Of a stretch of DNA of 64,000 nt, positions 184 through 64,000 are shown in pieces. Position numbers and translations under genes: made by a program. How positions within the stretch are numbered: the first letter of the stretch is position 1; every line of letters starts with the position of its first letter. Under the pieces are notes generated by a model. That model was not told where the DNA came from. It worked only from the letters and a program-made list of their open reading frames with translations, and did not search any database. Origin of the DNA: Alitta virens (lineage: Eukaryota > Annelida > Polychaeta > Phyllodocida > Nereididae); assembly GCA_932294295.1 (NCBI GenBank), contig OW028574.1, positions 26,916,145 to 26,980,144 of the forward strand. The letters run 5' to 3'.

Positions 184-186
184 GGC

Positions 187-282: not shown

Positions 283-564
283 ATAGCCTTTTGCAACGAC
301 GTGGCACAGTTAAATTATCAAAAGTACACACACAGCCATGTAGGAAGTGCACTAAGCAGTGAGATGCCAGACTTGCAGACCGCGCCGATTAAGTAGTAAG
401 GTAGGTCCACTTGGCACAGCCAATGAGAGGAAGAGGACGAAGCGTGCATTATGATAGCCACGTGGGGCACTCATGCGTAGCGGGGTCAAGGCCGTTGCAG
501 AGAGCCAGGATGCTGACAAGAAAACAAACGACAACAACGCAACACCGAAGTGAAATACTCTATA
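283..564 (+). repeat. Monomer type B (282 bp), reference copy
   Basis: Head ATAGCCTTTTGCAACGACG. Carries ATCAAAAGTACACACACAGCC, GACTTGCAGACC, GTAGTAAGGTAGG and CACTTGGCACAGCC. The tail is GCAGAGAGCC, AAAACAAACG and ACCGAAGTGAAATACTC as in type A, which suggests that A and B share their distal half by conversion. B opens modules M1 and M7. The B copies at 27984, 39527 and 63264 read ACACAACCATG in place of ACACAGCCATG, but the copy at 55512 does not. Confidence 0.93.
411..423 (+). other. Inverted repeat TTGGC-ACA-GCCAA, representative
   Basis: Perfect 5-bp arms with a 3-bp spacer, found in B, B2 and the first halves of F, F2 and F3. Other types have TTAGC-ACA-GCCAA with one mismatch. It resembles the Nuclear Factor I site TTGGC-N5-GCCAA, but the spacer is 3 rather than 5, so NFI dimer binding is not predicted. 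It also contains a CCAAT pentamer. Confidence 0.4.
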
Positions 565-842
565 GTAGCGTCAGGGAACGACGTGGCACAGTTAAATTAT
601 CAAGAGTACACAAAAATGTAGGAAGTGCACTTAGCAGTGAGATGCCAGACTCACAGGCCGCGCCGATGAAGTAGTAAGTAAGGTCCACTTAGCACAGCCA
701 ATGAGAGGCAGAGGACGAAGCGTGCATTATGATAGCCACGTGGGGCACTCGTGCGTAGCGGGGTCAAGGCCGTTGGAGAGGGCCAGGATGCTGACAAGAA
801 AACTAACGACAACAACGCAACACCGAAGTTAAATACTCTATA
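565..842 (+). repeat. Monomer type C (278 bp), reference copy
   Basis: Head GTAGCGTCAGGGAACGACGTGGCACAG. Diagnostic ACACAAAAATGTAGG replaces ACACAGCCATGTAGG. Middle AGTAGTAAGTAAGGTCC, distal GTTGGAGAGGGCC and tail ACCGAAGTTAAATACTC. Copies in M2, M4, M5 and M6 mostly read CACTCTTGCTTAGCGG, copies in M1 read CACTCGTGCGTAGCGG and copies in M7 read CACTCGTTCGTAGCGG. Type C therefore carries a module-specific tag near monomer position 185. C always follows B, B2, F or G/F. Confidence 0.93.
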
Positions 843-1109
843 ATAGCCTTTTGGAACGAAGTGGCACAGTTAAATTATCAAGAGTACACAGCCATGTAGG
901 AAGTGCACTTAGCAGACTCACACACCGCGCCGATTAAGCAGCAAGTTATGTCCACTTAGCACAGCCAATGAGAGGAAGAGGACGAAGCGTGCAATATGAT
1001 AGCCACGTGGGGCAATCGTGCGTAGCGGTGTCAAGGCCGTTGTAGAGGGCCAGGATGCTGACAAGAAAACTAACGACAACAACGCGACACCAAAGTGAAA
1101 CACTCTATA
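843..1109 (+). repeat. Monomer type Dd: type D with an 11-bp deletion (267 bp)
   Basis: Head ATAGCCTTTTGGAACGAAGTGG. It equals type D (reference copy at 2912) except that AGCAG-TGAGATGCCAG-ACTCAC is shortened to AGCAGACTCAC. The 11-bp loss lies between two CAG triplets. D-type markers follow: CACACCGCG, GATTAAGCAGCAAGTTATGTCC, GGGGCAATCG, GCGGTGTC and GCGACACCAAAG. Dd occurs only in M1 and M7 (843, 5114, 12170, 17439, 28544, 40087, 63824), as the first part of the fused unit at 56071, and as the tail of the hybrid at 10939. It is thus a module marker. Confidence 0.93.
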
Positions 1110-1231
1110 ATAGCCTTATGTTAGTCACGTGGGGCACTCGTGCGTAGCGGGGTCAAGGCCGTTGTAGAGGGCCAGGATGCTGACAAGAAAACCAACGACA
1201 ACAACGCAACACTAAAGTGAAATACTCTATA
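1110..1231 (+). repeat. Short monomer S1 (122 bp), reference copy
   Basis: Reads ATAGCCTTATGTTAGTCACGTGG and then runs as the distal part of a full monomer to ACTAAAGTGAAATACTCTATA. Relative to type A it lacks 160 bp. The breakpoint sits at TTATG, which occurs at 7-11 and again at 167-171 of type A. The deletion therefore looks like a microhomology event that created a stable short class. It contains GTCACGTG at 1124-1131, an exact match to the yeast CDEI consensus RTCACRTG, where most full-length monomers have GCCACGTG. S1 usually follows D, Dd, F2 or F3; the S1b variant follows A. Confidence 0.94.
1124..1131 (+). other. CDEI-like octamer GTCACGTG in short monomers, representative
   Basis: Exact match to RTCACRTG, the CDEI element of budding yeast point centromeres bound by Cbf1. 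It occurs in S1, S1b and most S2 copies because these read GTTAGTCACGTGG, where full monomers read GATAGCCACGTGG. An 8-mer match is weak evidence of function. Confidence 0.35.
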
Positions 1232-1513
1232 ATAGCCTTATGGAATGACGTGGCACAGTTAAATCATCAAGAGTACACACACAGCCATGTAGGAAGTGCA
1301 CTTAGCAGTGAAATGCCAGACTCACAGGCCGCGCCGATGAAGTAGTAAGGTAGGTGCACTTAGCACAGCCAATGAGAGGAAGAGGACGAAGCATGCATTA
1401 TGATAACCACGTGGGGCACTCGTGCGTAGCGGGGTCAAGGCCGTTGCAGAGAGCCAGGATGCTGACAAGAAAACAAACGACAACAACGCAACACCGAAGT
1501 GAAATACTCTATA

Positions 1514-1791
1514 GTAGCGTCAGGGAACGACGTGACACAGTTAAATTATCAAGAGTACACAGCCATGTAGGAAGTGCACTTAGCAGTGAGATGCCAGACT
1601 CACAGACCGCGCCGATTAAGCAGCATGTTATGTCCACTTAGCACAGCCAATGAGAGGAAGAGGACGAAGCGTGCAATATGATAGCCACGAGGGGCACTCG
1701 TGCGTAGCGGTGTCAAGGCCGTTGTAGAGGGCCAGGATGCTGACAAGAAAACTAACGACAACAACGCGACACTAAAGTGAAACACTCTATA
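1514..1791 (+). repeat. Monomer type E (278 bp), reference copy
   Basis: Head GTAGCGTCAGGGAACGACGTGACACAG; GTGACACAG separates it from type C. Middle CACAGACCGCG and GATTAAGCAGCATGTTATGTCC. Its E-box is destroyed: GCCACGAGGGGC in place of GCCACGTGGGGC. Tail GCGACACTAAAGTGAAACACTC. The E2 form, with CCGTTTAAGCAGCATG in place of CCGATTAAGCAGCATG, follows G (first at 9545-9822). E almost always precedes S2. In the expanded M2 copy it directly precedes F3. Confidence 0.93.
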
Positions 1792-1913
1792 ATAGCCTTA
1801 TGTTAGTCACGTGGGGCACTCGTGCGTAGCAGGGTCAAGGCCGTTGTAGAGGGCCAGGATGCTGACAAGAAAACCAACGACAACAACGCAACACTAAAGT
1901 GAAATACTCTATA
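1792..1913 (+). repeat. Short monomer S2 (122 bp), reference copy
   Basis: Same 160-bp deletion form as S1, but with GCGTAGCAGGGTC in place of GCGTAGCGGGGTC, and always between E or E2 and F or F2. Copies in M1, M3, M4 and M5 keep GTCACGTGG. Copies in M2 and M7 read GTTACGTGG and also CCGTTTTAGAG, which breaks the CACGTG core. S1 and S2 appear to be descendants of one deletion event that then diverged by position within the higher-order repeat. Confidence 0.93.
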
Positions 1914-2351
1914 ATAGCCTTATAGAATGACGTGGCACAGTTAAATTATCAAGAGTACACAGCCATGTAGGAAGTGCACTAAGCAGTGAGATGCCAGACT
2001 CACAGACCGCGCCGATTAAGTAGTAAGGTAGGTCCACTTGGCACAGCCAATCAGAGGCAGAGGACGAAGCGTGCATTATGATAGCCACGTGGGGCACTCG
2101 TGCGTAGCGGGGTCAAGGCCGTTGCAGAGGGAAGTGCACTTAGCAGTGAGATGCCAGACTCACAGGCCGCGCCGATGAAGTAGTAAGTTAGGTCCGCTTA
2201 ACACAGCCAATGAGAGGCAGAGGACGAAGCGTGCAATATGATAGCCACGTGGGGCACTCATGCGTAGCGGGGTCAAGGCCATTGTAGAGGGCCAGGATGC
2301 TGAAAAGAAAACTAACGACAACAACGCAACACCGAAGTTAAATACTCTATA
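1914..2351 (+). repeat. Long monomer type F (438 bp), reference copy
   Basis: Head ATAGCCTTATAGAATGACG. It runs as a 278-type monomer to GTTGCAGAGG at 2130, then restarts at GAAGTGCACTTAGC and runs a second time through the centre to the end. It is a monomer with an internal 160-bp tandem duplication. First half marker: CAGCCAATCAGAGGC. Second half markers: GTTAGGTCCGCTTAACAC, CACTCATGCG, GGCCATTG and CTGAAAAG. F ends modules M1, M3, M4 and M5. Copies in the A/F hybrids and at 42838 share GGGGTAAAGGCC, a private variant that links those regions. Confidence 0.93.
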
Positions 2352-2633
2352 ATAGCCTTTTGCAACGACGTGGCACAGTTAAATTATCAAAAGTACACAC
2401 ACAGCCATGTAGGAAGTGCACTAAGCAGTGAGATGCCAGACTCGCAGACCGCGCCGATTAAGTAGTAAGGTAGGTGCACTTGGCACAGCCAATGAGAGGC
2501 AGAGGACGAAGCGTGCATTATGATAGCCACGTGGGGCACTCGTGCGTAGCGGGGTCAAGGCCGTTGCAGAGAGCCAGGATGCTGACAAGAAAACAAACGA
2601 CAACAACGCAACACCGAAGTGAAATACTCTATA
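2352..2633 (+). repeat. Monomer type B2 (282 bp), reference copy
   Basis: As type B, but with GACTCGCAGACC for GACTTGCAGACC and CAATGAGAGGCAGAGG for CAATGAGAGGAAGAGG. Copies in M1/M2 territory read GTAGGTGCACTTGGCAC; later copies (24102 onward) read GTAGGTCCACTTGGCAC. B2 opens M2 and M5. Both forms carry the inverted repeat TTGGC-ACA-GCCAA. Confidence 0.92.
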
Positions 2634-2911
2634 GTAGCGTCAGGGAACGACGTGGCACAGTTAAATTATCAAGAGTACACAAAAATGTAGGAAGTGCACT
2701 TAGCAGTGAGATGCCAGACTCACAGGCCGCGCCGATGAAGTAGTAAGTAAGGTCCACTTAGCACAGCCAATGAGAGGCAGAGGACGAAGCGTGCATTATG
2801 ATAGCCACGTGGGGCACTCTTGCTTAGCGGGGTCAAGGCCGTTGGAGAGGGCCAGGATGCTGACAAGAAAACTAACGACAACAACGCAACACCGAAGTTA
2901 AATACTCTATA

Positions 2912-3189
2912 ATAGCCTTTTGGAACGAAGTGGCACAGTTAAATTATCAAGAGCACACAGCCATGTAGGAAGTGCACTAAGCAGTGAGATGCCAGACTCA
3001 CACACCGCGCCGATTAAGCAGCAAGTTATGTCCACTTAGCACAGCCAATGAGAGGAAGAGGACGAAGCGTGCAATATGATAGCCACGTGGGGCAATCGTG
3101 CGTAGCGGTGTCAAGGCCGTTGTAGAGGGCCAGGATGCTGACAAGAAAACTAACGACAACAACGCGACACCAAAGTGAAACACTCTATA
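2912..3189 (+). repeat. Monomer type D (278 bp), reference copy
   Basis: Head ATAGCCTTTTGGAACGAAGTGG and AAGAGCACACAGCC, with the full AGCAGTGAGATGCCAGACTC segment that Dd lacks. Distal GGGGCAATCG, GCGGTGTC and GCGACACCAAAGTGAAACACTC. Variants mark lineages. ACAACACGACACC is found at 24662, 33687, 36205 and 52190. GCAAGTCATGTCC in place of GCAAGTTATGTCC is found at 43836, 45238, 58978 and 60380. D precedes S1. Confidence 0.93.
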
Positions 3190-3993
3190 ATAGCCTTATG
3201 TTAGTCACGTGGGGCACTCGTGCGTAGCGGGGTCAAGGCCGTTGTAGAGGGCCAGGATGCTGACAAGAAAACCAACGACAACAACGCAACACTAAAGTGA
3301 AATACTCTATAATAGCCTTATGGAATGACGTGGCACAGTTAAATCATCAAGAGTACACACACAGCCATGTAGGAAGTGCACTTAGCAGTGAGATGCCAGA
3401 CTCACAGTCCGCGCCGATGAAGTAGTAAGGTAGGTGCACTTAGCACAGCCAATGAGAGGAAGAGGACGAAGCATGCATTATGATAACCACGTGGGGCACT
3501 CGTGCGTAGCGGGGTCAAGGCCGTTGCAGAGAGCCAGGATGCTGACAAGAAAACAAACGACAACAACGCAACACCGAAGTGAAATACTCTATAGTAGCGT
3601 CAGGGAACGACGTGACACAGTTAAATTATCAAGAGTACACAGCCATGTAGGAAGTGCACTTAGCAGTGAGATGCCAGACTCACAGACCGCGCCGATTAAG
3701 CAGCATGTTATGTCCACTTAGCACAGCCAATGAGAGGAAGAGGACGAAGCGTGCAATATGATAGCCACGAGGGGCACTCGTGCGTAGCGGTGTCAAGGCC
3801 GTTGTAGAGGGCCAGGATGCTGACAAGAAAACTAACGACAACAACGCGACACTAAAGTGAAACACTCTATAATAGCCTTATGTTAGTTACGTGGGGCACT
3901 CGTGCGTAGCAGGGTCAAGGCCGTTTTAGAGGGCCAGGATGCTGACAAGAAAACCAACGACAACAACGCAACACTAAAGTGAAATACTCTATA

Positions 3994-4431
3994 ATAGCCT
4001 TATAGAATGACGTGGCACAGTTAAATTATCAAGAGTACACAGCCATGTAGGAAGTGCACTAAGCAGTGAGATGCCAGACTCACAGACCGCGCCGATTAAG
4101 TAGTAAGGTAGGTCCACTTGGCACAGCCAATCAGAGGCAGAGGACGAAGCGTGCATTATGATAGCCACATGGGGCACTCGTGCGTAGCGGGGTCAAGGCC
4201 GTTGCAGAGGGAAGTGCACTTAGCAGTGAGATGCCAGACTCACACACCGCGCCGATTAAGCAGCAAGTTATGTCCAATTAGCACAGCCAATGAGAGGAAG
4301 AGGACGAAGCGTGCAATATGATAGCCACGTGGGGCAATCGTGCGTAGCGGTGTCAAGGCCGTTTTAGAGGGCCAGGATGCCGACAAGAAAACTAACGACA
4401 ACAACGCGACACCAAAGTGAAACACTCTATA
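3994..4431 (+). repeat. Long monomer type F2 (438 bp), reference copy
   Basis: The first half matches F apart from GCCACATGGGGC, which breaks the E-box. The second half is D-like rather than F-like: CACACCGCG, CAGCAAGTTATGTCCAATTAGC, GGGGCAATCG, GCGGTGTC, CCGTTTTAGAGG and GATGCCGAC. F2 therefore looks like an F-type 160-bp duplication whose distal part was replaced by D sequence. It ends M2 and M7 and is followed by S1. Confidence 0.92.
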
Positions 4432-4553
4432 ATAGCCTTATGTTAGTCACGTGGGGCACTCGTGCGTAGCGGGGTCAAGGCCGTTGTAGAGGGCCAGGAT
4501 GCTGACAAGAAAACAAACGACAACAACGCAACACCGAAGTGAAATACTCTATA
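4432..4553 (+). repeat. S1x: S1/A fused short monomer (122 bp)
   Basis: Begins as S1, but its end reads AAAACAAACGACAACAACG and ACCGAAGTGAAATACTC, as in type A, where true S1 has AAAACCAACG and ACTAAAGTG. The next unit is B. The simplest reading is an in-register 282-bp loss between an S1-A pair, since S1-A-B is found at 11206-11891. The same fusion occurs at 16757-16878. It marks the M2 to M1 junction of the 4,271-bp repeat. Confidence 0.85.
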
Positions 4554-6622
4554 ATAGCCTTTTGCAACGACGTGGCACAGTTAAATTATCAAAAGTACAC
4601 ACACAGCCATGTAGGAAGTGCACTAAGCAGTGAGATGCCAGACTTGCAGACCGCGCCGATTAAGTAGTAAGGTAGGTCCACTTGGCACAGCCAATGAGAG
4701 GAAGAGGACGAAGCGTGCATTATGATAGCCACGTGGGGCACTCATGCGTAGCGGGGTCAAGGCCGTTGCAGAGAGCCAGGATGCTGACAAGAAAACAAAC
4801 GACAACAACGCAACACCGAAGTGAAATACTCTATAGTAGCGTCAGGGAACGACGTGGCACAGTTAAATTATCAAGAGTACACAAAAATGTAGGAAGTGCA
4901 CTTAGCAGTGAGATGCCAGACTCACAGGCCGCGCCGATGAAGTAGTAAGTAAGGTCCACTTAGCACAGCCAATGAGAGGCAGAGGACGAAGCGTGCATTA
5001 TGATAGCCATGTGGGGCACTCGTGCGTAGCGGGGTCAAGGCCGTTGGAGAGGGCCAGGATGCTGACAAGAAAACTAACGACAACAACGCAACACCGAAGT
5101 TAAATACTCTATAATAGCCTTTTGGAACGAAGTGGCACAGTTAAATTATCAAGAGTACACAGCCATGTAGGAAGTGCACTTAGCAGACTCACACACCGCG
5201 CCGATTAAGCAGCAAGTTATGTCCACTTAGCACAGCCAATGAGAGGAAGAGGACGAAGCGTGCAATATGATAGCCACGTGGGGCAATCGTGCGTAGCGGT
5301 GTCAAGGCCGTTGTAGAGGGCCAGGATGCTGACAAGAAAACTAACGACAACAACGCGACACCAAAGTGAAACACTCTATAATAGCCTTATGTTAGTCACG
5401 TGGGGCACTCGTGCGTAGCGGGGTCAAGGCCGTTGTAGAGGGCCAGGATGCTGACAAGAAAACCAACGACAACAACGCAACACTAAAGTGAAATACTCTA
5501 TAATAGCCTTATGGAATGACGTGGCACAGTTAAATCATCAAGAGTACACACACAGCCATGTAGGAAGTGCACTTAGCAGTGAAATGCCAGACTCACAGGC
5601 CGCGCCGATGAAGTAGTAAGGTAGGTGCACTTAGCACAGCCAATGAGAGGAAGAGGACGAAGCATGCATTATGATAACCACGTGGGGCACTCGTGCGTAG
5701 CGGGGTCAAGGCCGTTGCAGAGAGCCAGGATGCTGACAAGAAAACAAACGACAACAACGCAACACCGAAGTGAAATACTCTATAGTAGCGTCAGGGAACG
5801 ACGTGACACAGTTAAATTATCAAGAGTACACAGCCATGTAGGAAGTGCACTTAGCAGTGAGATGCCAGACTCACAGACCGCGCCGATTAAGCAGCATGTT
5901 ATGTCCACTTAGCACAGCCAATGAGAGGAAGAGGACGAAGCGTGCAATATGATAGCCACGAGGGGCACTCGTGCGTAGCGGTGTCAAGGCCGTTGTAGAG
6001 GGCCAGGATGCTGACAAGAAAACTAACGACAACAACGCGACACTAAAGTGAAACACTCTATAATAGCCTTATGTTAGTCACGTGGGGCACTCGTGCATAG
6101 CAGGGTCAAGGCCGTTGTAGAGGGCCAGGATGCTGACAAGAAAACCAACGACAACAACGCAACACTAAAGTGAAATACTCTATAATAGCCTTATAGAATG
6201 ACGTGGCACAGTTAAATTATCAAGAGTACACAGCCATGTAGGAAGTGCACTAAGCAGTGAGATGCCAGACTCACAGACCGCGCCGATTAAGTAGTAAGGT
6301 AGGTCCACTTGGCACAGCCAATCAGAGGCAGAGGACGAAGCGTGCATTATGATAGCCACGTGGGGCACTCGTGCGTAGCGGGGTCAAGGCCGTTGCAGAG
6401 GGAAGTGCACTTAGCAGTGAGATGCCAGACTCACAGGCCGCGCCGATGAAGTAGTAAGTTAGGTCCGCTTAACACAGCCAATGAGAGGCAGAGGACGAAG
6501 CGTGCAATATGATAGCCACGTGGGGCACTCATGCGTAGCGGGGTCAAGGCCATTGTAGAGGGCCAGGATGCTGAAAAGAAAACTAACGACAACAACGCAA
6601 CACCGAAGTTAAATACTCTATA
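4554..6622 (+). repeat. Module M1, copy 2 (2,069 bp)
   Basis: Unit starts: B 4554, C 4836, Dd 5114, S1 5381, A 5503, E 5785, S2 6063, F 6185. Private bases are GCCATGTGG at 5007-5015, which breaks the E-box, and GTGCATAGC at 6097. The A copy shares GTGAAATGCCAG with other M1 copies. Confidence 0.92.
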
Positions 6623-8824
6623 ATAGCCTTTTGCAACGACGTGGCACAGTTAAATTATCAAAAGTACACACACAGCCATGTAGGAAGTGCACTAAGCAGT
6701 GAGATGCCAGACTCGCAGACCGCGCCGATTAAGTAGTAAGGTAGGTGCACTTGGCACAGCCAATGAGAGGCAGAGGACGAAGCGTGCATTATGATAGCCA
6801 CGTGGGGCACTCGTGCGTAGCGGGGTCAAGGCCGTTGCAGAGAGCCAGGATGCTGACAAGAAAACAAACGACAACAACGCAACACCGAAGTGAAATACTC
6901 TATAGTAGCGTCAGGGAACGACGTGGCACAGTTAAATTATCAAGAGTACACAAAAATGTAGGAAGTGCACTTAGCAGTGAGATGCCAGACTCACAGGCCG
7001 CGCCGATGAAGTAGTAAGTAAGGTCCACTTAGCACAGCCAATGAGAGGCAGAGGACGAAGCGTGCATTATGATAGCCACGTGGGGCACTCTTGCTTAGCG
7101 GGGTCAAGGCCGTTGGAGAGGGCCAGGATGCTGACAAGAAAACTAACGACAACAACGCAACACCGAAGTTAAATACTCTATAATAGCCTTTTGGAACGAA
7201 GTGGCACAGTTAAATTATCAAGAGCACACAGCCATGTAGGAAGTGCACTAAGCAGTGAGATGCCAGACTCACACACCGCGCCGATTAAGCAGCAAGTTAT
7301 GTCCACTTAGCACAGCCAATGAGAGGAAGAGGACGAAGCGTGCAATATGATAGCCACGTGGGGCAATCGTGCGTAGCGGTGTCAAGGCCGTTGTAGAGGG
7401 CCAGGATGCTGACAAGAAAACTAACGACAACAACGCGACACCAAAGTGAAACACTCTATAATAGCCTTATGTTAGTCACGTGGGGCACTCGTGCGTAGCG
7501 GGGTCAAGGCCGTTGTAGAGGGCCAGGATGCTGACAAGAAAACCAACGACAACAACGCAACACTAAAGTGAAATACTCTATAATAGCCTTATGGAATGAC
7601 GTGGCACAGTTAAATCATCAAGAGTACACACACAGCCATGTAGGAAGTGCACTTAGCAGTGAGATGCCAGACTCACAGTCCGCGCCGATGAAGTAGTAAG
7701 GTAGGTGCACTTAGCACAGCCAATGAGAGGAAGAGGACGAAGCATGCATTATGATAACCACGTGGGGCACTCGTGCGTAGCGGGGTCAAGGCCGTTGCAG
7801 AGAGCCAGGATGCTGACAAGAAAACAAACGACAACAACGCAACACCGAAGTGAAATACTCTATAGTAGCGTCAGGGAACGACGTGACACAGTTAAATTAT
7901 CAAGAGTACACAGCCATGTAGGAAGTGCACTTAGCAGTGAGATGCCAGACTCACAGACCGCGCCGATTAAGCAGCATGTTATGTCCACTTAGCACAGCCA
8001 ATGAGAGGAAGAGGACGAAGCGTGCAATATGATAGCCACGAGGGGCACTCGTGCGTAGCGGTGTCAAGGCCGTTGTAGAGGGCCAGGATGCTGACAAGAA
8101 AACTAACGACAACAACGCGACACTAAAGTGAAACACTCTATAATAGCCTTATGTTAGTTACGTGGGGCACTCGTGCGTAGCAGGGTCAAGGCCGTTTTAG
8201 AGGGCCAGGATGCTGACAAGAAAACCAACGACAACAACGCAACACTAAAGTGAAATACTCTATAATAGCCTTATAGAATGACGTGGCACAGTTAAATTAT
8301 CAAGAGTACACAGCCATGTAGGAAGTGCACTAAGCAGTGAGATGCCAGACTCACAGACCGCGCCGATTAAGTAGTAAGGTAGGTCCACTTGGCACAGCCA
8401 ATCAGAGGCAGAGGACGAAGCGTGCATTATGATAGCCACATGGGGCACTCGTGCGTAGCGGGGTCAAGGCCGTTGCAGAGGGAAGTGCACTTAGCAGTGA
8501 GATGCCAGACTCACACACCGCGCCGATTAAGCAGCAAGTTATGTCCAATTAGCACAGCCAATGAGAGGAAGAGGACGAAGCGTGCAATATGATAGCCACG
8601 TGGGGCAATCGTGCGTAGCGGTGTCAAGGCCGTTTTAGAGGGCCAGGATGCCGACAAGAAAACTAACGACAACAACGCGACACCAAAGTGAAACACTCTA
8701 TAATAGCCTTATGTTAGTCACGTGGGGCACTCGTGCGTAGCGGGGTCAAGGCCGTTGTAGAGGGCCAGGATGCTGACAAGAAAACCAACGACAACAACGC
8801 AACACTAAAGTGAAATACTCTATA
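6623..8824 (+). repeat. Module M2, copy 2 (2,202 bp)
   Basis: Unit starts: B2 6623, C 6905, D 7183, S1 7461, A 7583, E 7865, S2 8143, F2 8265, S1 8703. Here the last short unit is a true S1 (AAAACCAACG, ACTAAAGTG), and A follows. The array leaves the M1-M2 series at this point. Confidence 0.92.
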
Positions 8825-10382
8825 ATAGCCTTATGGAATGACGTGGCACAGTTAAATCATCAAGAGTACACACACAGCCATGTAGGAAGTGCACTTAGCA
8901 GTGAGATGCCAGACTCACAGGCCGCGCCGATGAAGTAGTAAGGTAGGTGCACTTAGCACAGCCAATGAGAGGAAGAGGACGAAGCATGCATTATGATAAC
9001 CACGTGGGGCACTCGTGCGTAGCGGGGTCAAGGCCGTTGCAGAGAGCCAGGATGCTGACAAGAAAACAAACGACAACAACGCAACACCGAAGTTAAATAC
9101 TCTATAATAGCCTTTTAGAACGAAGTGGCCCAGTTAAATTATCAAGAGTACACAGTCATGTAGGACGTGCACTTAGCAGTGAGATGCCAGACTCACAGAC
9201 CGCGCCGATTAAGCAGCAAGTTATGTCCACTTAGCACAGCCAATGAGAGGAAGAGGACGAAGCGTGCAATATGATAGCCACGTGGGGCACTCGTGCGTAG
9301 CGGGGTCAAGGCCGTTGCAGAGGGAAGTGCACTTAGTAGTGAGATGCCAGACTCACAGGCCGCGCCGATGAAGTAGTAAGTTAGGTCCACTTAGCACAGC
9401 CAATGAGAGGCAGAGGACGAAGCGTGCAATATGATAGCCACGTGGGGCACTCGTGCGTGGCGGTATCAAGGCCGTTGTAGAGGGCCTGGATGCTGACAAG
9501 AAAACTAACGACAACAACGCGACACCGAAGTGAAATACTCTATAGTAGCGTCAGGGAACGACGTGACACAGTTAAATTATCAAGAGTACACAGCCATGTA
9601 GGAAGTGCACTTAGCAGTGAGATGCCAGACTCACAGACCGCGCCGTTTAAGCAGCATGTTATGTCCACTTAGCACAGCCAATGAGAGGAAGAGGACGAAG
9701 CGTGCAATATGATAGCCACGAGGGGCACTCGTGCGTAGCGGTGTCAAGGCCGTTGTAGAGGGCCAGGATGCTGACAAGAAAACTAACGACAACAACGCGA
9801 CACTAAAGTGAAACACTCTATAATAGCCTTATGTTAGTCACGTGGGGCACTCGTGCGTAGCAGGGTCAAGGCCGTTGTAGAGGGCCAGGATGCTGACAAG
9901 AAAACCAACGACAACAACGCAACACTAAAGTGAAATACTCTATAATAGCCTTATAGAATGACGTGGCACAGTTAAATTATCAAGAGTACACAGCCATGTA
10001 GGAAGTGCACTAAGCAGTGAGATGCCAGACTCACAGACCGCGCCGATTAAGTAGTAAGGTAGGTCCACTTGGCACAGCCAATCAGAGGCAGAGGACGAAG
10101 CGTGCATTATGATAGCCACGTGGGGCACTCGTGCGTAGCGGGGTCAAGGCCGTTGCAGAGGGAAGTGCACTTAGCAGTGAGATGCCAGACTCACAGGCCG
10201 CGCCGATGAAGTAGTAAGTTAGGTCCGCTTAACACAGCCAATGAGAGGCAGAGGACGAAGCGTGCAATATGATAGCCACGTGGGGCACTCATGCGTAGCG
10301 GGGTCAAGGCCATTGTAGAGGGCCAGGATGCTGAAAAGAAAACTAACGACAACAACGCAACACCGAAGTGAAATACTCTATA
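8825..10382 (+). repeat. Module M3, copy 1 (1,558 bp, allele a)
   Basis: Unit starts: A 8825, G 9107, E2 9545, S2 9823, F 9945. Carries the Ga allele shared with 21150 and 48678. C follows rather than B2. Confidence 0.9.
9107..9544 (+). repeat. Long monomer type G (438 bp), reference copy (allele Ga)
   Basis: Head ATAGCCTTTTAGAACGAAGTGGCCCAG, then ACACAGTCATGTAGGACGTGC. Like F it is duplicated internally by 160 bp at GCAGAGGGAAGTGC. The distal part reads GCGGTATCAAGG and GCGACACCGAAGTG. Three alleles exist. Ga (here, 21432, 48960) has TTAGTAGTGAG, GTGGCGG and GGCCTGG. Gb (inside M5) has TTAGCAGTG with GGCCTGG. Gc (30457, 42000, 57862) has CCTTTAAGAACG and GGCCAGG. These alleles are useful for tracking duplications. 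Confidence 0.9.
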
Positions 10383-10660
10383 GTAGCGTCAGGGAACGAC
10401 GTGGCACAGTTAAATTATCAAGAGTACACAAAAATGTAGGAAGTGCACTTAGCAGTGAGATGCCAGACTCACAGGCCGCGCCGATGAAGTAGTGAGTAAG
10501 GTCCACTTAGCACAGCCAATGAGAGGCAGAGGACGAAGCGTGCATTATGATAGCCACGTGGGGCACTCTTGCTTAGCGGGGTCAAGGCCGTTGGAGAGGG
10601 CCAGGATGCTGACAAGAAAACTAACGACAACAACGCAACACCGAAGTTAAATACTCTATA

Positions 10661-11205: not shown

Positions 11206-11609
11206 ATAGCCTTATGTTAGTCACGTGGGGCACTCGTGCGTAGCGGGGTCAAGGCCGTTGTAGAGGGCCAGGATGCTGACAAGAAAACCAACGACAACAA
11301 CGCAACACTAAAGTGAAATACTCTATAATAGCCTTATGGAATGACGTGGCACAGTTAAATCATCAAGAGTACACACACAGCCATGTAGGAAGTGCACTTA
11401 GCAGTGAGATGCCAGACTCACAGGCCGCGCCGATGAAGTAGTAAGGTAGGTGCACTTAGCACAGCCAATGAGAGGAAGAGGACGAAGCATGCATTATGAT
11501 AACCACGTGGGGCACTCGTGCGTAGCGGGGTCAAGGCCGTTGCAGAGAGCCAGGATGCTGACAAGAAAACAAACGACAACAACGCAACACCGAAGTGAAA
11601 TACTCTATA

Positions 11610-54147: not shown

Positions 54148-55511
54148 GTAGCGTCAGGGAACGACGTGGCACAGTTAAATTATCAAGAGTACACAAAAAT
54201 GTAGGAAGTGCACTTAGCAGTGAGATGCCAGACTCACAGGCCGCGCCGATGAAGTAGTAAGTAAGGTCCACTTAGCACAGCCAATGAGAGGCAGAGGACG
54301 AAGCGTGCATTATGATAGCCACGTGGGGCACTCTTGCTTAGCGGGGTCAAGGCCGTTGGAGAGGGCCAGGATGCTGACAAGAAAACTAACGACAACAACG
54401 CAACACCGAAGTTAAATACTCTATAATAGCCTTTTGGAACGAAGTGGCACAGTTATATTATCAAGAGCACACAGCCATGTAGGAAGTGCACTAAGCAGTG
54501 AGATGCCAGACTCACACACCGCGCCGATTAAGCAGCAAGTTATGTCCACTTAGCACAGCCAATGAGAGGAAGAGGACGAAGCGTGCAATATGATAGCCAC
54601 GTGGGGCAATCGTGCGTAGCGGTGTCAAGGCCGTTGTAGAGGGCCAGGATGCTGACAAGAAAACTAACGACAACAACGCGACACCAAAGTGAAACACTCT
54701 ATAATAGCCTTATGTTAGTCACGTGGGGCACTCGTGCGTAGCGGGGTCAAGGCCGTTGTAGAGGGCCAGGATGCTGACAAGAAAACCAACGACAACAACG
54801 CAACACTAAAGTGAAATACTCTATAATAGCCTTATGGAATGACGTGGCACAGTTAAATCATCAAGAGTACACACACAGCCATGTAGGAAGTGCACTTAGC
54901 AGTGAGATGCCAGACTCACAGGCCGCGCCGATGAAGTAGTAAGGTAGGTGCACTTAGCACAGCCAATGAGAGGAAGAGGACGAAGCATGCATTATGATAA
55001 CCACGTGGGGCACTCGTGCGTAGCGGGGTCAAGGCCGTTGCAGAGAGCCAGGATGCTGACAAGAAAACAAACGACAACAACGCAACACCGAAGTGAAATA
55101 CTCTATAATAGCCTTAAGTTAGTCACGTGGGGCACTCGTGCGTAGCGGGGTCAAGGCCGTTGTAGAGGGCCAGGATGCTGACAAGAAAACCAACGACAAC
55201 AACGCAACACTAAAGTGAAATACTCTATAATAGCCTTATGGAATGACGTGGCACAGTTAAATCATCAAGAGTACACACACAGCCATGTAGGAAGTGCACT
55301 TAGCAGTGAGATGCCAGACTCACAGGCCGCGCCGATGAAGTAGTAAGGTAGGTGCACTTAGCACAGCCAATGAGAGGAAGAGGACGAAGCATGCATTATG
55401 ATAACCACGTGGGGCACTCGTGCGTAGCGGGGTCAAGGCCGTTGCAGAGAGCCAGGATGCTGACAAGAAAACAAACGACAACAACGCAACACCGAAGTGA
55501 AATACTCTATA
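54148..55511 (+). repeat. Module M6, copy 3 (1,364 bp)
   Basis: Unit starts: C 54148, D 54426, S1 54704, A 54826, S1b 55108, A 55230. D has a private CAGTTATATTATC near 54451. Confidence 0.9.
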
Positions 55512-57579
55512 ATAGCCTTTTGCAACGACGTGGCACAGTTAAATTATCAAAAGTACACACACAGCCATGTAGGAAGTGCACTAAGCAGTGAGATGCCAGA
55601 CTTGCAGACCGCGCCGATTAAGTAGTAAGGTAGGTCCACTTGGCACAGCCAATGAGAGGAAGAGGACGAAGCGTGCATTATGATAGCCACGTGGGGCACT
55701 CGTGCGTAGCGGGGTCAAGGCCGTTGCAGAGAGCCAGGATGCTGACAAGAAACAAACGACAACAACGCAACACCGAAGTGAAATACTCTATAGTAGCGTC
55801 AGGGAACGACGTGGCACAGTTAAATTATCAAGAGTACACAAAAATGTAGGAAGTGCACTTAGCAGTGAGATGCCAGACTCACAGGCCGCGCCGATGAAGT
55901 AGTAAGTAAGGTCCACTTAGCACAGCCAATGAGAGGCAGAGGACGAAGCGTGCATTATGATAGCCACGTGGGGCACTCGTTCGTAGCGGGGTCAAGGCCG
56001 TTGGAGAGGGCCAGGATGCTGACAAGAAAACTAACGACAACAACGCAACACCGAAGTTAAATACTCTATAATAGCCTTTTGGAACGAAGTGGCACAGTTA
56101 AATTATCAAGAGTACACAGCCATGTAGGAAGTGCACTTAGCAGACTCACACACCGCGCCGATTAAGCAGCAAGTTATGTCCACTTAGCACAGCCAATGAG
56201 AGGAAGAGGACGAAGCGTGCAATATGATAGCCACGTGGGGCAATCGTGCGTAGCGGTGTCAAGGCCGTTGTAGAAGGCCAGGATGCTGACAAGAAAACCA
56301 ACGACAACAACGCAACACTAAAGTGAAATACTCTATAATAGCCTTATGGAATGACGTGGCACAGTTAAATCATCAAGAGTACACACACAGCCATGTAGGA
56401 AGTGCACTTAGCAGTGAGATGCCAGACTCACAGTCCGCGCCGATGAAGTAGTAAGGTAGGTGCACTTAGCACAGCCAATGAGAGGAAGAGGACGAAGCAT
56501 GCATTATGATAACCACGTGGGGCACTCGTGCGTAGCGGGGTCAAGGCCGTTGCAGAGAGCCAGGATGCTGACAAGAAAACAAACGACAACAACGCAACAC
56601 CGAAGTGAAATACTCTATAGTAGCGTCAGGGAACGACGTGACACAGTTAAATTATCAAGAGTACACAGCCATGTAGGAAGTGCACTTAGCAGTGAGATGC
56701 CAGACTCACAGACCGCGCCGATTAAGCAGCATGTTATGTCCACTTAGCACAGCCAATGAGAGGAAGAGGACGAAGCGTGCAATATGATAGCCACGAGGGG
56801 CACTCGTGCGTAGCGGTGTCAAGGCCGTTGTAGAGGGCCAGGATGCTGACAAGAAAACTAACGACAACAACGCGACACTAAAGTGAAACACTCTATAATA
56901 GCCTTATGTTAGTTACGTGGGGCACTCGTGCGTAGCAGGGTCAAGGCCGTTTTAGAGGGCCAGGATGCTGACAAGAAAACCAACGACAACAACGCAACAC
57001 TAAAGTGAAATACTCTATAATAGCCTTATAGAATGACGTGGCACAGTTAAATTATCAAGAGTACACAGCCATGTAGGAAGTGCACTAAGCAGTGAGATGC
57101 CAGACTCACAGACCGCGCCGATTAAGTAGTAAGGTAGGTCCACTTGGCACAGCCAATCAGAGGCAGAGGACGAAGCGTGCATTATGATAGCCACATGGGG
57201 CACTCGTGCGTAGCGGGGTCAAGGCCGTTGCAGAGGGAAGTGCACTTAGCAGTGAGATGCCAGACTCACACACCGCGCCGATTAAGCAGCAAGTTATGTC
57301 CAATTAGCACAGCCAATGAGAGGAAGAGGACGAAGCGTGCAATATGATAGCCACGTGGGGCAATCGTGCGTAGCGGTGTCAAGGCCGTTTTAGAGGGCCA
57401 GGATGCCGACAAGAAAACTAACGACAACAACGCGACACCAAAGTGAAACACTCTATAATAGCCTTATGTTAGTCACGTGGGGCACTCGTGCGTAGCGGGG
57501 TCAAGGCCGTTGTAGAGGGCCAGGATGCTGACAAGAAAACCAACGACAACAACGCAACACTAAAGTGAAATACTCTATA
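55512..57579 (+). repeat. Module M7, copy 3 with two deletions (2,068 bp)
   Basis: Unit starts: B 55512 (281 bp, one A lost from GACAAGAAAAC near 55751), C 55793, Dd/S1 56071, A 56338, E 56620, S2 56898, F2 57020, S1 57458. The length is 2,191 minus 1 minus 122. B here keeps ACACAGCCATG. Confidence 0.89.
56071..56337 (+). repeat. Hybrid monomer Dd/S1 (267 bp)
   Basis: Starts as Dd, including the 11-bp deletion, and changes after GTTGTAGA into the S1 tail (AAAACCAACG, ACTAAAGTGAAATACTC). A separate S1 is therefore missing. An in-register 122-bp deletion against the sister copy at 28544-28932 explains it. It also carries a private TAGAAGGCC where the others have TAGAGGGCC. Confidence 0.87.
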
Positions 57580-58977
57580 ATAGCCTTATGGAATGACGTG
57601 GCACAGTTAAATCATCAAGAGTACACACACAGCCATGTAGGAAGTGCACTTAGCAGTGAGATGCCAGACTCACAGGCCGCGCCGATGAAGTAGTAAGGTA
57701 GGTGCACTTAGCACAGCCAATGAGAGGAAGAGGACGAAGCATGCATTATGATAACAACGTGGGGCACTCGTGCGTAGCGGGGTCAAGGCCGTTGCAGAGA
57801 GCCAGGATGCTGACAAGAAAACAAACGACAACAACGCAACACCGAAGTTAAATACTCTATAATAGCCTTTAAGAACGAAGTGGCCCAGTTAAATTATCAA
57901 GAGTACACAGTCATGTAGGACGTGCACTTAGCAGTGAGATGCCAGACTCACAGACCGCGCCGATTAAGCAGCAAGTTATGTCCACTTAGCACAGCCAATG
58001 AGAGGAAGAGGACGAAGCGTGCAATATGATAGCCACGTGGGGCACTCGTGCGTAGCGGGGTCAAGGCCGTTGCAGAGGGAAGTGCACTTAGCAGTGAGAT
58101 GCCAGACTCACAGGCCGCGCCGATGAAGTAGTAAGTTAGGTCCACTTAGCACAGCCAATGAGAGGCAGAGGACGAAGCGTGCAATATGATAGCCACGTGG
58201 GGCACTCGTGCGTAGCGGTATCAAGGCCGTTGTAGAGGGCCAGGATGCTGACAAGAAAACTAACGACAACAACGCGACACCGAAGTGAAATACTCTATAG
58301 TAGCGTCAGGGAACGACGTGACACAGTTAAATTATCAAGAGTACACAGCCATGTAGGAAGTGCACTTAGCAGTGAGATGCCAGACTCACAGACCGCGCCG
58401 TTTAAGCAGCATGTTATGTCCACTTAGCACAGCCAATGAGAGGAAGAGGACGAAGCGTGCAATATGATAGCCACGAGGGGCACTCGTGCGTAGCGGTGTC
58501 AAGGCCGTTGTAGAGGGCCAGGATGCTGACAAGAAAACTAACGACAACAACGCGACACTAAAGTGAAACACTCTATAATAGCCTTATGTTAGTCACGTGG
58601 GGCACTCGTGCGTAGCAGGGTCAAGGCCGTTGTAGAGGGCCAGGATGCTGACAAGAAAACCAACGACAACAACGCAACACTAAAGTGAAATACTCTATAA
58701 TAGCCTTATAGAATGACGTGGCACAGTTAAATTATCAAGAGTACACAGCCATGTAGGAAGTGCACTAAGCAGTGAGATGCCAGACTCACAGACCGCGCCG
58801 ATTAAGTAGTAAGGTAGGTCCACTTGGCACAGCCAATCAGAGGCAGAGGACGAAGCGTGCATTATGATAGCCACGTGGGGCACTCTTGCTTAGCGGGGTC
58901 AAGGCCGTTGGAGAGGGCCAGGATGCTGACAAGAAAACTAACGACAACAACGCAACACCGAAGTTAAATACTCTATA
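57580..58977 (+). repeat. Module M3, copy 6, ending in F/C (1,398 bp, allele c)
   Basis: Unit starts: A 57580, G 57862, E2 58300, S2 58578, F/C 58700. GATAACAACG and Gc as at 41718. The fusion of F into C removes 720 bp relative to that copy. Confidence 0.88.
58700..58977 (+). repeat. Hybrid monomer F/C (278 bp)
   Basis: Head F (CTTATAGAATG, CAGCCAATCAGAGG) and tail C (CACTCTTGCTTAGCGG, GTTGGAGAGGGCC, ACCGAAGTTAAATACTC). D follows. Compared with 42838-43835 it removes 720 bp, equal to F plus B2. I saw it once. Confidence 0.86.
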
Positions 58978-61339
58978 ATAGCCTTTTGGAACGAAGTGGC
59001 ACAGTTAAATTATCAAGAGCACACAGCCATGTAGGAAGTGCACTAAGCAGTGAGATGCCAGACTCACACACCGCGCCGATTAAGCAGCAAGTCATGTCCA
59101 CTTAGCACAGCCAATGAGAGGAAGAGGACGAAGCGTGCAATATGATAGCCACGTGGGGCAATCGTGCGTAGCGGTGTCAAGGCCGTTGTAGAGGGCCAGG
59201 ATGCTGACAAGAAAACTAACGACAACAACGCGACACCAAAGTGAAACACTCTATAATAGCCTTATGTTAGTCACGTGGGGCACTCGTGCGTAGCGGGGTC
59301 AAGGCCGTTGTAGAGGGCCAGGATGCTGACAAGAAAACCAACGACAACAACGCAACACTAAAGTGAAATACTCTATAATAGCCTTATGGAATGACGTGGC
59401 ACAGTTAAATCATCAAGAGTACACACACAGCCATGTAGGAAGTGCACTTAGCAGTGAGATGCCAGACTCACAGACCGCGCCGATTAAGTAGTAAGGTAGG
59501 TCCACTTGGCACAGCCAATCAGAGGCAGAGGACGAAGCGTGCATTATGATAGCCACGTGGGGCACTCGTGCGTAGCGGGGTCAAGGCCGTTGCAGAGGGA
59601 AGTGCACTTAGCAGTGAGATGCCAGACTCACAGGCCGCGCCGATGAAGTAGTAAGTTAGGTCCGCTTAACACAGCCAATGAGAGGCAGAGGACGAAGCGT
59701 GCAATATGATAGCCACGTGGGGCACTCATGCGTAGCGGGGTAAAGGCCATTGTAGAGGGCCAGGATGCTGAAAAGAAAACTAACGACAACAACGCAACAC
59801 CGAAGTTAAATACTCTATAATAGCCTTTTGCAACGACGTGGCACAGTTAAATTATCAAAAGTACACACACAGCCATGTAGGAAGTGCACTAAGCAGTGAG
59901 ATGCCAGACTCGCAGACCGCGCCGATTAAGTAGTAAGGTAGGTCCACTTGGCACAGCCAATGAGAGGCAGAGGACGAAGCGTGCATTATGATAGCCACGT
60001 GGGGCACTCGTGCGTAGCGGGGTCAAGGCCGTTGCAGAGAGCCAGGATGCTGACAAGAAAACAAACGACAACAACGCAACACCGAAGTGAAATACTCTAT
60101 AGTAGCGTCAGGGAACGACGTGGCACAGTTAAATTATCAAGAGTACACAAAAATGTAGGAAGTGCACTTAGCAGTGAGATGCCAGACTCACAGGCCGCGC
60201 CGATGAAGTAGTAAGTAAGGTCCACTTAGCACAGCCAATGAGAGGCAGAGGACGAAGCGTGCATTATGATAGCCACGTGGGGCACTCTTGCTTAGCGGGG
60301 TCAAGGCCGTTGGAGAGGGCCAGGATGCTGACAAGAAAACTAACGACAACAACGCAACACCGAAGTTAAATACTCTATAATAGCCTTTTGGAACGAAGTG
60401 GCACAGTTAAATTATCAAGAGCACACAGCCATGTAGGAAGTGCACTAAGCAGTGAGATGCCAGACTCACACACCGCGCCGATTAAGCAGCAAGTCATGTC
60501 CACTTAGCACAGCCAATGAGAGGAAGAGGACGAAGCGTGCAATATGATAGCCACGTGGGGCAATCGTGCGTAGCGGTGTCAAGGCCGTTGTAGAGGGCCA
60601 GGATGCTGACAAGAAAACTAACGACAACAACGCGACACCAAAGTGAAACACTCTATAATAGCCTTATGTTAGTCACGTGGGGCACTCGTGCGTAGCGGGG
60701 TCAAGGCCGTTGTAGAGGGCCAGGATGCTGACAAGAAAACCAACGACAACAACGCAACACTAAAGTGAAATACTCTATAATAGCCTTATAGAATGACGTG
60801 GCACAGTTAAATTATCAAGAGTACACAGCCATGTAGGAAGTGCACTAAGCAGTGAGATGCCAGACTCACAGACCGCGCCGATTAAGTAGTAAGGTAGGTC
60901 CACTTGGCACAGCCAATCAGAGGCAGAGGACGAAGCGTGCATTATGATAGCCACATGGGGCACTCGTGCGTAGCGGGGTCAAGGCCGTTGCAGAGGGAAG
61001 TGCACTTAGCAGTGAGATGCCAGACTCACACACCGCGCCGATTAAGCAGCAAGTTATGTCCAATTAGCACAGCCAATGAGAGGAAGAGGACGAAGCGTGC
61101 AATATGATAGCCACGTGGGGCAATCGTGCGTAGCGGTGTCAAGGCCGTTTTAGAGGGCCAGGATGCCGACAAGAAAACTAACGACAACAACGCGACACCA
61201 AAGTGAAACACTCTATAATAGCCTTATGTTAGTCACGTGGGGCACTCGTGCGTAGCGGGGTCAAGGCCGTTGTAGAGGGCCAGGATGCTGACAAGAAAAC
61301 CAACGACAACAACGCAACACTAAAGTGAAATACTCTATA
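58978..61339 (+). repeat. Rearranged block D, S1, A/F, B2, C, D, S1, F2, S1 (2,362 bp)
   Basis: Unit starts: D 58978, S1 59256, A/F 59378, B2 59820, C 60102, D 60380, S1 60658, F2 60780, S1 61218. It follows 43836-45637 at an offset of 15,142 bp. It then skips A, E and S2 (682 bp) and continues like 46320 at an offset of 14,460. GCAAGTCATG in both D copies and GGGGTAAAGG in A/F confirm the relationship. Confidence 0.88.
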
Positions 61340-61899
61340 ATAGCCTTATGGAATGACGTGGCACAGTTAAATCATCAAGAGTACACACACAGCCATGTAG
61401 GAAGTGCACTTAGCAGTGAGATGCCAGACTCACAGGCCGCGCCGATGAAGTAGTAAGGTAGGTGCACTTAGCACAGCCAATGAGAGGAAGAGGACGAAGC
61501 ATGCATTATGATAACCACGTGGGGCACTCGTGCGTAGCGGGGTCAAGGCCGTTGCAGAGAGCCAGGATGCTGACAAGAAAACAAACGACAACAACGCAAC
61601 ACCGAAGTTAAATACTCTATAATAGCCTTTAAGAACGAAGTGGCCCAGTTAAATTATCAAGAGTACACAGTCATGTAGGACGTGCACTTAGCAGTGAGAT
61701 GCCAGACTCACAGGCCGCGCCGATGAAGTAGTAAGTTAGGTCCGCTTAACACAGCCAATGAGAGGCAGAGGACGAAGCGTGCAATATGATAGCCACGTGG
61801 GGCACTCATGCGTAGCGGGGTCAAGGCCATTGTAGAGGGCCAGGATGCTGAAAAGAAAACTAACGACAACAACGCAACACCGAAGTGAAATACTCTATA
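61340..61899 (+). repeat. A plus G/F hybrid pair (560 bp)
   Basis: A 61340 and G/F 61622. It aligns with 46880-47439 at an offset of 14,460 bp, with the same switch point, so it is one event copied rather than two independent fusions. Confidence 0.87.
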
Positions 61900-63263
61900 G
61901 TAGCGTCAGGGAACGACGTGGCACAGTTAAATTATCAAGAGTACACAAAAATGTAGGAAGTGCACTTAGCAGTGAGATGCCAGACTCACAGGCCGCGCCG
62001 ATGAAGTAGTAAGTAAGGTCCACTTAGCACAGCCAATGAGAGGCAGAGGACGAAGCGTGCATTATGATAGCCACGTGGGGCACTCTTGCTTAGCGGGGTC
62101 AAGGCCGTTGGAGAGGGCCAGGATGCTGACAAGAAAACTAACGACAACAACGCAACACCGAAGTTAAATACTCTATAATAGCCTTTTGGAACGAAGTGGC
62201 ACAGTTAAATTATCAAGAGCACACAGCCATGTAGGAAGTGCACTAAGCAGTGAGATGCCAGACTCACACACCGCGCCGATTAAGCAGCAAGTTATGTCCA
62301 CTTAGCACAGCCAATGAGAGGAAGAGGACGAAGCGTGCAATATGATAGCCACGTGGGGCAATCGTGCGTAGCGGTGTCAAGGCCGTTGTAGAGGGCCAGG
62401 ATGCTGACAAGAAAACTAACGACAACAACGCGACACCAAAGTGAAACACTCTATAATAGCCTTATGTTAGTCACGTGGGGCACTCGTGCGTAGCGGGGTC
62501 AAGGCCGTTGTAGAGGGCCAGGATGCTGACAAGAAAACCAACGACAACAACGCAACACTAAAGTGAAATACTCTATAATAGCCTTATGGAATGACGTGGC
62601 ACAGTTAAATCATCAAGAGTACACACACAGCCATGTAGGAAGTGCACTTAGCAGTGAGATGCCAGACTCACAGGCCGCGCCGATGAAGTAGTAAGGTAGG
62701 TGCACTTAGCACAGCCAATGAGAGGAAGAGGACGAAGCATGCATTATGATAACCACGTGGGGCACTCGTGCGTAGCGGGGTCAAGGCCGTTGCAGAGAGC
62801 CAGGATGCTGACAAGAAAACAAACGACAACAACGCAACACCGAAGTGAAATACTCTATAATAGCCTTAAGTTAGTCACGTGGGGCACTCGTGCGTAGCGG
62901 GGTCAAGGCCGTTGTAGAGGGCCAGGATGCTGACAAGAAAACCAACGACAACAACGCAACACTAAAGTGAAATACTCTATAATAGCCTTATGGAATGACG
63001 TGGCACAGTTAAATCATCAAGAGTACACACACAGCCATGTAGGAAGTGCACTTAGCAGTGAGATGCCAGACTCACAGGCCGCGCCGATGAAGTAGTAAGG
63101 TAGGTGCACTTAGCACAGCCAATGAGAGGAAGAGGACGAAGCATGCATTATGATAACCACGTGGGGCACTCGTGCGTAGCGGGGTCAAGGCCGTTGCAGA
63201 GAGCCAGGATGCTGACAAGAAAACAAACGACAACAACGCAACACCGAAGTGAAATACTCTATA
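61900..63263 (+). repeat. Module M6, copy 4 (1,364 bp)
   Basis: Unit starts: C 61900, D 62178, S1 62456, A 62578, S1b 62860, A 62982. It aligns with 26620 at an offset of 35,280 bp. Confidence 0.9.
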
Positions 63264-64000
63264 ATAGCCTTTTGCAACGACGTGGCACAGTTAAATTATC
63301 AAAAGTACACACACAACCATGTAGGAAGTGCACTAAGCAGTGAGATGCCAGACTTGCAGACCGCGCCGATTAAGTAGTAAGGTAGGTCCACTTGGCACAG
63401 CCAATGAGAGGAAGAGGACGAAGCGTGCATTATGATAGCCACGTGGGGCACTCGTGCGTAGCGGGGTCAAGGCCGTTGCAGAGAGCCAGGATGCTGACAA
63501 GAAAACAAACGACAACAACGCAACACCGAAGTGAAATACTCTATAGTAGCGTCAGGGAACGACGTGGCACAGTTAAATTATCAAGAGTACACAAAAATGT
63601 AGGAAGTGCACTTAGCAGTGAGATGCCAGTCTCACAGGCCGCGCCGATGAAGTAGTAAGTAAGGTCCACTTAGCACAGCCAATGAGAGGCAGAGGACGAA
63701 GCGTGCATTATGATAGCCACGTGGGGCACTCGTTCGTAGCGGGGTCAAGGCCGTTGGAGAGGGCCAGGATGCTGACAAGAAAACTAACGACAACAACGCA
63801 ACACCGAAGTTAAATACTCTATAATAGCCTTTTGGAACGAAGTGGCACAGTTAAATTATCAAGAGTACACAGCCATGTAGGAAGTGCACTTAGCAGACTC
63901 ACACACCGCGCCGATTAAGCAGCAAGTTATGTCCACTTAGCACAGCCAATGAGAGGAAGAGGACGAAGCGTGCAATATGATAGCCACGTGGGGCAATCGT
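63264..64000 (+). repeat. Module M7, copy 4, partial (737 bp to window end)
   Basis: Unit starts: B 63264, C 63546, Dd 63824 (177 bp, cut by the window edge). It has ACACAACCATG in B and CACTCGTTCG in C, as at 27984. A private change, ATGCCAGTCTCAC, lies near 63629. The array clearly continues beyond 64,000. Confidence 0.9.

What the first reader, a model, noticed from the sequence alone, without database searches (positions are those of the whole stretch)
283..64000. Nested higher-order repeat with at least three levels, and possibly four
Monomers (about 282 bp) group into seven module types of 1.4-2.5 kb. Modules group into a 4,271-bp unit on the left (M1+M2) and a 9,025-bp unit on the right (M3-M4-M5-M6-M7). 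The right-hand units themselves recur with a period near 27.5 kb. The arithmetic closes exactly: 2,069+2,202=4,271; 1,558+1,394+2,518+1,364+2,191=9,025; 9,025+2,518=11,543. Deep nesting of this kind with module shuffling is much more complex than simple monomeric satellite and would be a good new family to describe.
Basis: seen in the sequence. Interest (0 to 1): 0.75.

Follow-up and report, generated by a model that had tools for sequence, protein, structure and literature searches.

The report
Shuffled satellite block, probably near centromere
The window is a slice of a 1.27-million-base tandem repeat in a eukaryotic chromosome, probably at or beside its centromere, whose near-identical blocks were copied and shuffled in register; this is a known kind of DNA rather than a clean four-level nested pattern.

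Summary
The repeat structure is real but partly misread. The window is all satellite DNA: 279 head-to-tail units (mostly 122, 160, 278 or 282 bp) of 21 types and only 55 distinct sequences. They are not periods: 27528 is the sum of two neighbouring frames of unequal length (11543+15985), and in the 257 kb of array I could read it gives one copy pair. Duplicates of 2 kb or more use 700 different offsets; only 5 recur. So this is a mosaic of cassettes, close to published 'cascading' or 'local-nested' higher-order repeats, without a fixed top-level unit. Almost every copy keeps monomer register and some units are hybrids, which points to homologous unequal exchange. Outside the window, the array spans about 1.27 Mb on one contig (C2:26842298-28116310; about 20% read, the rest probed). 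A 14-17-bp satellite flanks it, about 2.4 Mb in one orientation on the left, 69-84 kb in the opposite orientation on the right. The two terminal monomers share an insertion not seen in the 257 kb read or in 37 interior probes, consistent with growth from the inside. Centromeric identity is inferred, not shown. Other chromosomes could not be surveyed.

The parts
1..64000 (+). Slice of a 1.27-Mb satellite array (C2:26842298-28116310); window = C2:26916145-26980144
205..4475 (+). N-frame 1, 4271 bp, 19 units: NDOABGACEIDFABGACHA
4476..11531 (+). N-frame 2, 7056 bp, 31 units, includes hybrid units P and T
11532..16800 (+). N-frame 3, 5269 bp, 23 units
16801..27905 (+). N-frame 4, 11105 bp, 49 units; a frame of the same length and unit order lies at C2:26875586, 57359 bp upstream
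27906..39448 (+). N-frame 5, 11543 bp, 51 units; lacks one 2080-bp cassette and has one extra 2518-bp cassette relative to frame 4
39449..55433 (+). N-frame 6, 15985 bp, 70 units, includes hybrid units R and S; frames 5+6 = 27528 bp, the supposed fourth level
55434..63185 (+). N-frame 7, 7752 bp, 34 units, includes hybrid units R and S
23241..31719 (+). First copy of the longest near-identical pair inside the window (8479 bp, 3 mismatches; second copy 34784-43262)
20233..28224 (+). First copy of the long pair at offset 27528 (7992 bp, 13 mismatches; second copy 47761-55752)
46120..46519 (+). 400-bp composite unit U (122+278, cutting motif mutated)

Best explanation
This is a non-coding satellite array. 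A 278/282-bp monomer first diverged into about 20 types (mean 93% identity) and gave rise to 122-bp and 160-bp shortened units. Later, blocks of about one to at least 13 kb were repeatedly duplicated and deleted by in-register homologous exchange (unequal crossing over, or break-induced replication out of register). That leaves a mosaic of near-identical cassettes with no fixed top-level unit, old monomers stranded at the edges and a homogenised middle. Shown: tandem structure, register, hybrid units, non-periodic duplications, divergent edges, flanking satellites. Inferred: the order of these steps, which exchange pathway, and that the whole satellite block of about 4 Mb is the (peri)centromere of this chromosome.
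For: 1106 of 1112 units in the 257 kb read have one of seven lengths; the other six are five units carrying an embedded minisatellite and one 400-bp unit with a mutated cutting motif. 2029 of 2033 copy pairs of at least 1 kb are in register. Units R, T and P are exact two-parent hybrids and S is one mismatch off. 706 pairs of 2 kb or more average 3.0 mismatches per kb, against 92.7% mean identity between types. 90.7% of the read array lies in such duplicates. The first three left-edge tiles have best second copies of 96.8, 95.8 and 98.2%, against an interior mean of 99.7% (lowest 97.4%); the right edge gives 85.6 and 96.0% for the two of four tiles with a near-full-length match. The terminal monomers, 1.27 Mb apart, are 23 and 27 bp longer than the interior form in one stretch; a diagnostic 20-base piece of it occurs once at each end and, on either strand, nowhere else in the 300 kb read or in 89 probe loci; the interior probes held 35 homologous stretches of the ordinary form. 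Satellites of other families adjoin on both sides, the whole lying at about 24.4-28.5 Mb of a 69.4-Mb contig.
Against: A crude exchange simulation without mutation did not match the counts: all 15 runs reused more offsets (33-1078, against 5 of 559) and gave longer longest runs (65-625 units, against 60). Same-type units are not clearly more alike when close together: Spearman rho -0.01 to 0.13, above the largest of 200 permutations for 1 of 5 types, and there barely (0.107 against 0.105), so homogenisation is not simply local. With 21 possible parents some two-parent fits come easily. No CENP-B-box match in the window and no chromatin data. Read depth could not be checked, so local misassembly is not excluded.
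Confidence: 0.83

Rival explanations
1. A true multi-level nested HOR with 4.27-kb, 9.0-kb and 27.5-kb periods.
For: All named offsets carry excess near-identical copies.
Against: 27528 and 11543 each occur as one pair of at least 1 kb in 257 kb; 700 distinct offsets carry copies of 2 kb or more and only 5 are reused; a periodic control made from frame 4 reuses 84 of 110 offsets.
Confidence: 0.07
2. Amplification by excision as circles, rolling-circle copying and reinsertion, rather than exchange within the array.
For: Long copies lie far apart: 13561 bp at offset 57359, and a 1-kb probe 1.12 Mb away 99.4% identical over 1000 of 1000 bases. Weak dependence of similarity on distance.
Against: Rolling-circle products should be runs of one fixed tandem unit, which the 257 kb read does not show; reinsertion would need to be in register and in one direction nearly every time, while one inverted stretch was met (27.24-27.26 Mb, 3 of 37 probes).
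Confidence: 0.12
3. Part of the mosaic is an assembly artefact (misjoined or mis-ordered near-identical copies).
For: Copies differ by 0-6 mismatches per kb over 2-8 kb, which is hard to assemble; the assembly method is not known here.
Against: No N in 300 kb; private variants, divergent edges and sharp junctions to unrelated satellites are resolved.
Confidence: 0.1

Closest known systems
Cascading alpha-satellite HORs (human chromosome 15; PMC11050224, abstract and passages seen)
   Same: Monomer types repeat within one HOR copy, giving several offset peaks and variant copies.
   Different: There 65% of 429 15mer copies are canonical (abstract); here no frame length exceeds 6 of 42. The monomer is unrelated in length (171 against 278/282 bp), and this family has 122- and 160-bp units.
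Local-nested HORs (HiCAT; PMC10053651, passages seen)
   Same: Sub-blocks duplicated inside a larger unit; hybrid monomers.
   Different: There the nesting is tandem amplification of a subunit within a recognisable canonical HOR; here long copies lie at 700 different offsets.
Human centromere layering, old monomers at the edges and young HOR core (PMC8997354, PMC9549924, passages seen)
   Same: Divergent edges, homogeneous middle, other satellites on the flanks.
   Different: No CENP-A data here; flanks are a 14-17-bp minisatellite; a monomer of the same old form lies at both ends.
Tribolium madens satellite blocks with macro-dyad symmetry (PMC13081366, abstract and passages seen)
   Same: Megabase blocks holding two satellites, with inverted stretches.
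   Different: There inverted subarrays of a few to several tens of kb lie within the arrays and are frequent; here one inverted stretch was sampled inside the core, and the flanking minisatellites have opposite orientations about 1.27 Mb apart.

Membership tests
Satellite DNA | Long head-to-tail tandem array | tested here: met
   257 kb contiguous; 36 of 37 probes between 27.105 and 28.115 Mb are this family
Satellite DNA | Non-coding | tested here: met
   No ORF of 150 aa or more in the window; 278, 122 and 160 are not multiples of 3
Regular (Willard-type) HOR | Fixed multi-monomer unit repeated in tandem | tested here: not met
   42 frames of 1109-48359 bp; 695 of 700 offsets used once; tested on 257 kb of 1.27 Mb
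Cascading / local-nested HOR | Same monomer type occurs more than once in a HOR copy; sub-blocks duplicated | tested here: met
   Unit string, e.g. A ten times in frame 4
Cascading / local-nested HOR | A dominant canonical copy | tested here: not met
   Most frequent frame length 6 of 42, the 1231-bp short frame
Alpha satellite | 171-bp monomer and CENP-B box | tested here: not met
   278/282-bp monomer; 0 box matches in the window (motif recalled)
Functional centromere | CENP-A or equivalent chromatin | not testable with these tools
   Only position and repeat content known
Macro-dyad satellite organisation | Large inverted subarrays | tested here: inconclusive
   Flanking minisatellite + on the left and - on the right; 282-bp family on the - strand in 3 of 37 probes

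The most novel reading that the evidence does not exclude
The 1.27-Mb core is the centromere of this chromosome and grew outward from one small founding locus. The two end monomers, which share an insertion seen nowhere else sampled, are the separated halves of that locus; the embedded minisatellite units record exchange with the neighbouring satellite; and the opposed orientation of the two minisatellite flanks makes a mirror-like centromere layout of a kind that one paper (PMC13081366) reports as documented only in Tribolium.
Probability: 0.2. Interest if true: 0.6.

Novelty: new member of a known kind. Interest (0 to 1): 0.33.

Why it matters
It gives a readable record of how a megabase satellite grows. 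The cassettes are few enough to read as a string, the copies are young, both ends can be seen, and monomers of an old form survive at both ends. With reads from several individuals it would let one count duplication and deletion events directly and test unequal exchange against break-induced replication. As a sequence pattern it is otherwise ordinary for satellite DNA.

Tried and rejected
A 27.5-kb fourth level: rejected, it is two frames of unequal length. An ancient internal dimer explaining 122+160 = 282: shuffles score as well (235 of 300 and 291 of 300), so the sum is left unexplained. CENP-B box: none in the window. RNA family: none in 1-12000 at gathering threshold. Stable folding of one monomer: no (DNA z 0.49, RNA z 1.44 and -0.45). 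Relatives in plasmids (window 1-3000, distant blastn), prokaryote genome contigs and viral contigs: none (the last two by one exact 24-base pattern each). A unit-level self-alignment with a low gap cost chained everything and was discarded. A lag scan timed out and was rewritten. Paper searches: 282-bp/nested HOR (20 of 34 listed), hybrid-monomer wording (no paper), cascading, truncated monomers (15 of 44 listed), the 14-base unit as letters (no paper), embedded minisatellite (12 of 20 listed), array edges (12 of 35 listed). Going by titles and abstract beginnings, none was recognisably about this family; the organism is unknown to me, so absence from print is not claimed.

The genome-wide distribution could not be surveyed. 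The one answered search scored only 40 of 1073 candidates; all 58 rows lie on C2, which does not exclude other contigs.

Full report
WHAT IS THERE. The window lies at C2:26916145-26980144 of a 671-Mb assembly in 23 contigs, so it is eukaryotic, by size. Cut at a conserved 11-base motif, it gives 279 head-to-tail units of 278 bp (113), 122 bp (62), 282 bp (55), 160 bp (39), 267 bp (8), 277 bp (1) and 400 bp (1). There are 55 distinct sequences in 21 clusters, named A to U. Clusters are 88-99% identical to each other, mean 92.7% over the 165 of 210 cluster pairs with at least 150 aligned bases. The order is far from random: 37 of 441 possible neighbour pairs occur, and the longest repeated run is 37 units, against a maximum of 6 in 500 shuffles and 24 in 500 Markov strings. 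No ORF of 150 aa or more exists in the window.

4271, 9025, 11543 and 27528 are real offsets between near-identical copies. The strongest single lag is 278 rather than 282. The longest pairs in the window are 8479 bp at 11543 (3 mismatches), 7992 bp at 27528 (13), 7026 bp at 12325 (4) and 7019 bp at 9025 (6). Cutting at the rare unit N explains them: frames are 4271, 7056, 5269, 11105, 11543, 15985 and 7752 bp. 27528 is frame 5 plus frame 6; 12325 is frame 2 plus frame 3; 9025 is frame 4 minus a 2080-bp cassette; 11543 is 9025 plus a 2518-bp cassette. The arithmetic closes because whole units are gained and lost, not because of a hierarchy of periods.

THE WHOLE ARRAY. I read 300 kb around and including the window. 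The array starts at C2:26842298 and is continuous to the end of the read stretch: 1112 units, 251 distinct sequences, 42 clusters at the same threshold, some of the window's clusters (A/Q, E/L, F/P) merging. No unit of the opposite strand was found in the first 260 kb of this stretch. 1106 of 1112 units have one of seven lengths, and 2029 of 2033 copy pairs of at least 1 kb are in register. Copies of 2 kb or more number 706 at 700 offsets, 5 of them reused, and cover 90.7% of the array. The longest is 13561 bp at offset 57359 with 8 mismatches, followed by 13290 bp at 12497 with 9. Frames run from 1109 to 48359 bp; the most frequent length occurs 6 times in 42.

HOW IT PROBABLY AROSE. Register keeping and hybrid units point to homologous recombination: R is B joined to C, T is G joined to O, P is F joined to B, all without mismatch, and S is J joined to E with one. 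With 21 possible parents some two-parent fits come easily, so only the rare types are used as evidence. The exchange pathway is not resolved. A simple exchange simulation differs from the observed counts in all 15 runs, and similarity between same-type units hardly depends on distance, so long-range exchange or mixing is needed. Published models are unequal exchange and break-induced replication (PMC8997354 and PMC8122249, passages seen).

SURROUNDINGS. Short probes trace the array right to a junction at C2:28116310, 1.27 Mb in all. Of 37 probes between 27.105 and 28.115 Mb, 36 are this family, 3 of them on the minus strand (27.24-27.26 Mb); the one at 27.45 Mb is minisatellite. On the left lies a 14-17-bp minisatellite (unit TTAATGTTGACAGC and relatives): 42.3 kb read directly and 17 of 17 probes from 24.5 to 26.79 Mb; probes at 24.0 to 24.4 Mb do not match it (0 of 5). 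On the right the same minisatellite runs in the opposite orientation (17 of 17 probes, 28.1175-28.185 Mb), followed by a third tandem repeat with a unit of roughly 24 bp, judged by eye (6 of 6 probes, 28.20-28.45 Mb); the probe at 28.5 Mb matches none of these. The 42 kb of minisatellite that was read also holds many long copies at mixed offsets.

EDGES. The end monomers at both junctions carry the same insertion: the stretch is 93 bp (left) and 97 bp (right) against 70 bp in all 723 interior units that the pattern caught, and a diagnostic 20-base piece is identical at both ends. That piece, with up to 4 mismatches and on either strand, occurs nowhere else in the 300 kb read or in 89 probe loci, 28.6 kb. 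The two edge monomers are identical at 198 of 213 aligned bases, gaps set aside. Edge tiles are more diverged than interior ones (two of the four right-edge tiles had no near-full-length match and gave no value). This is what growth from the inside predicts, and old monomers at array edges are known for human centromeres. About 80% of the core (27.1-28.115 Mb) was only sampled, so further copies of the edge form there are not excluded.

EMBEDDED MINISATELLITE. Five units inside the read array (425, 439 or 467 bp) contain the flanking 14-bp repeat at one monomer position, after CACAGTTAA, with three bases (TAA) repeated at the far side. The left array edge meets the minisatellite at about this same position. 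The right edge meets it elsewhere in the monomer. The two families have therefore probably exchanged sequence; the direction is not known.

VERDICT. A real, recent and highly rearranged satellite array, most likely in a (peri)centromeric block. Best filed as satellite DNA with cascading or local-nested HOR organisation and no dominant canonical unit. The claim of a four-level nested repeat is not supported.

Noticed in passing
C2:24.4-26.842 Mb (L009-L013, L043-L052, L058, L075-L080): About 2.4 Mb of a 14-17-bp minisatellite, adjoining the window's array; the 42 kb read is itself full of long shuffled copies.
   Followed up: partly
C2:28116310-28.19 Mb (L122, L088-L101, L064, L120, L121): The same minisatellite in the opposite orientation on the other side of the array.
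   Followed up: partly
C2:28.20-28.45 Mb (L065-L070): A third tandem repeat, unit about AAGGTGTGAACAACAAACCAAAAA, next to the right flank.
   Followed up: no
C2:26846344, 26892189, 26896249, 26904686, 26908746: Five units with the 14-bp minisatellite embedded at one fixed monomer position, with a 17-base lead-in not found in the 42 kb of flanking minisatellite read.
   Followed up: partly
C2:27.24-27.26 Mb (L105, L038, L106): A stretch of the 282-bp family in inverted orientation inside the core.
   Followed up: partly
window-wide: The two shortened unit lengths add up exactly to the full monomer (122+160 = 282) although their junctions lie at different places; no internal dimer was detected.
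   Followed up: partly
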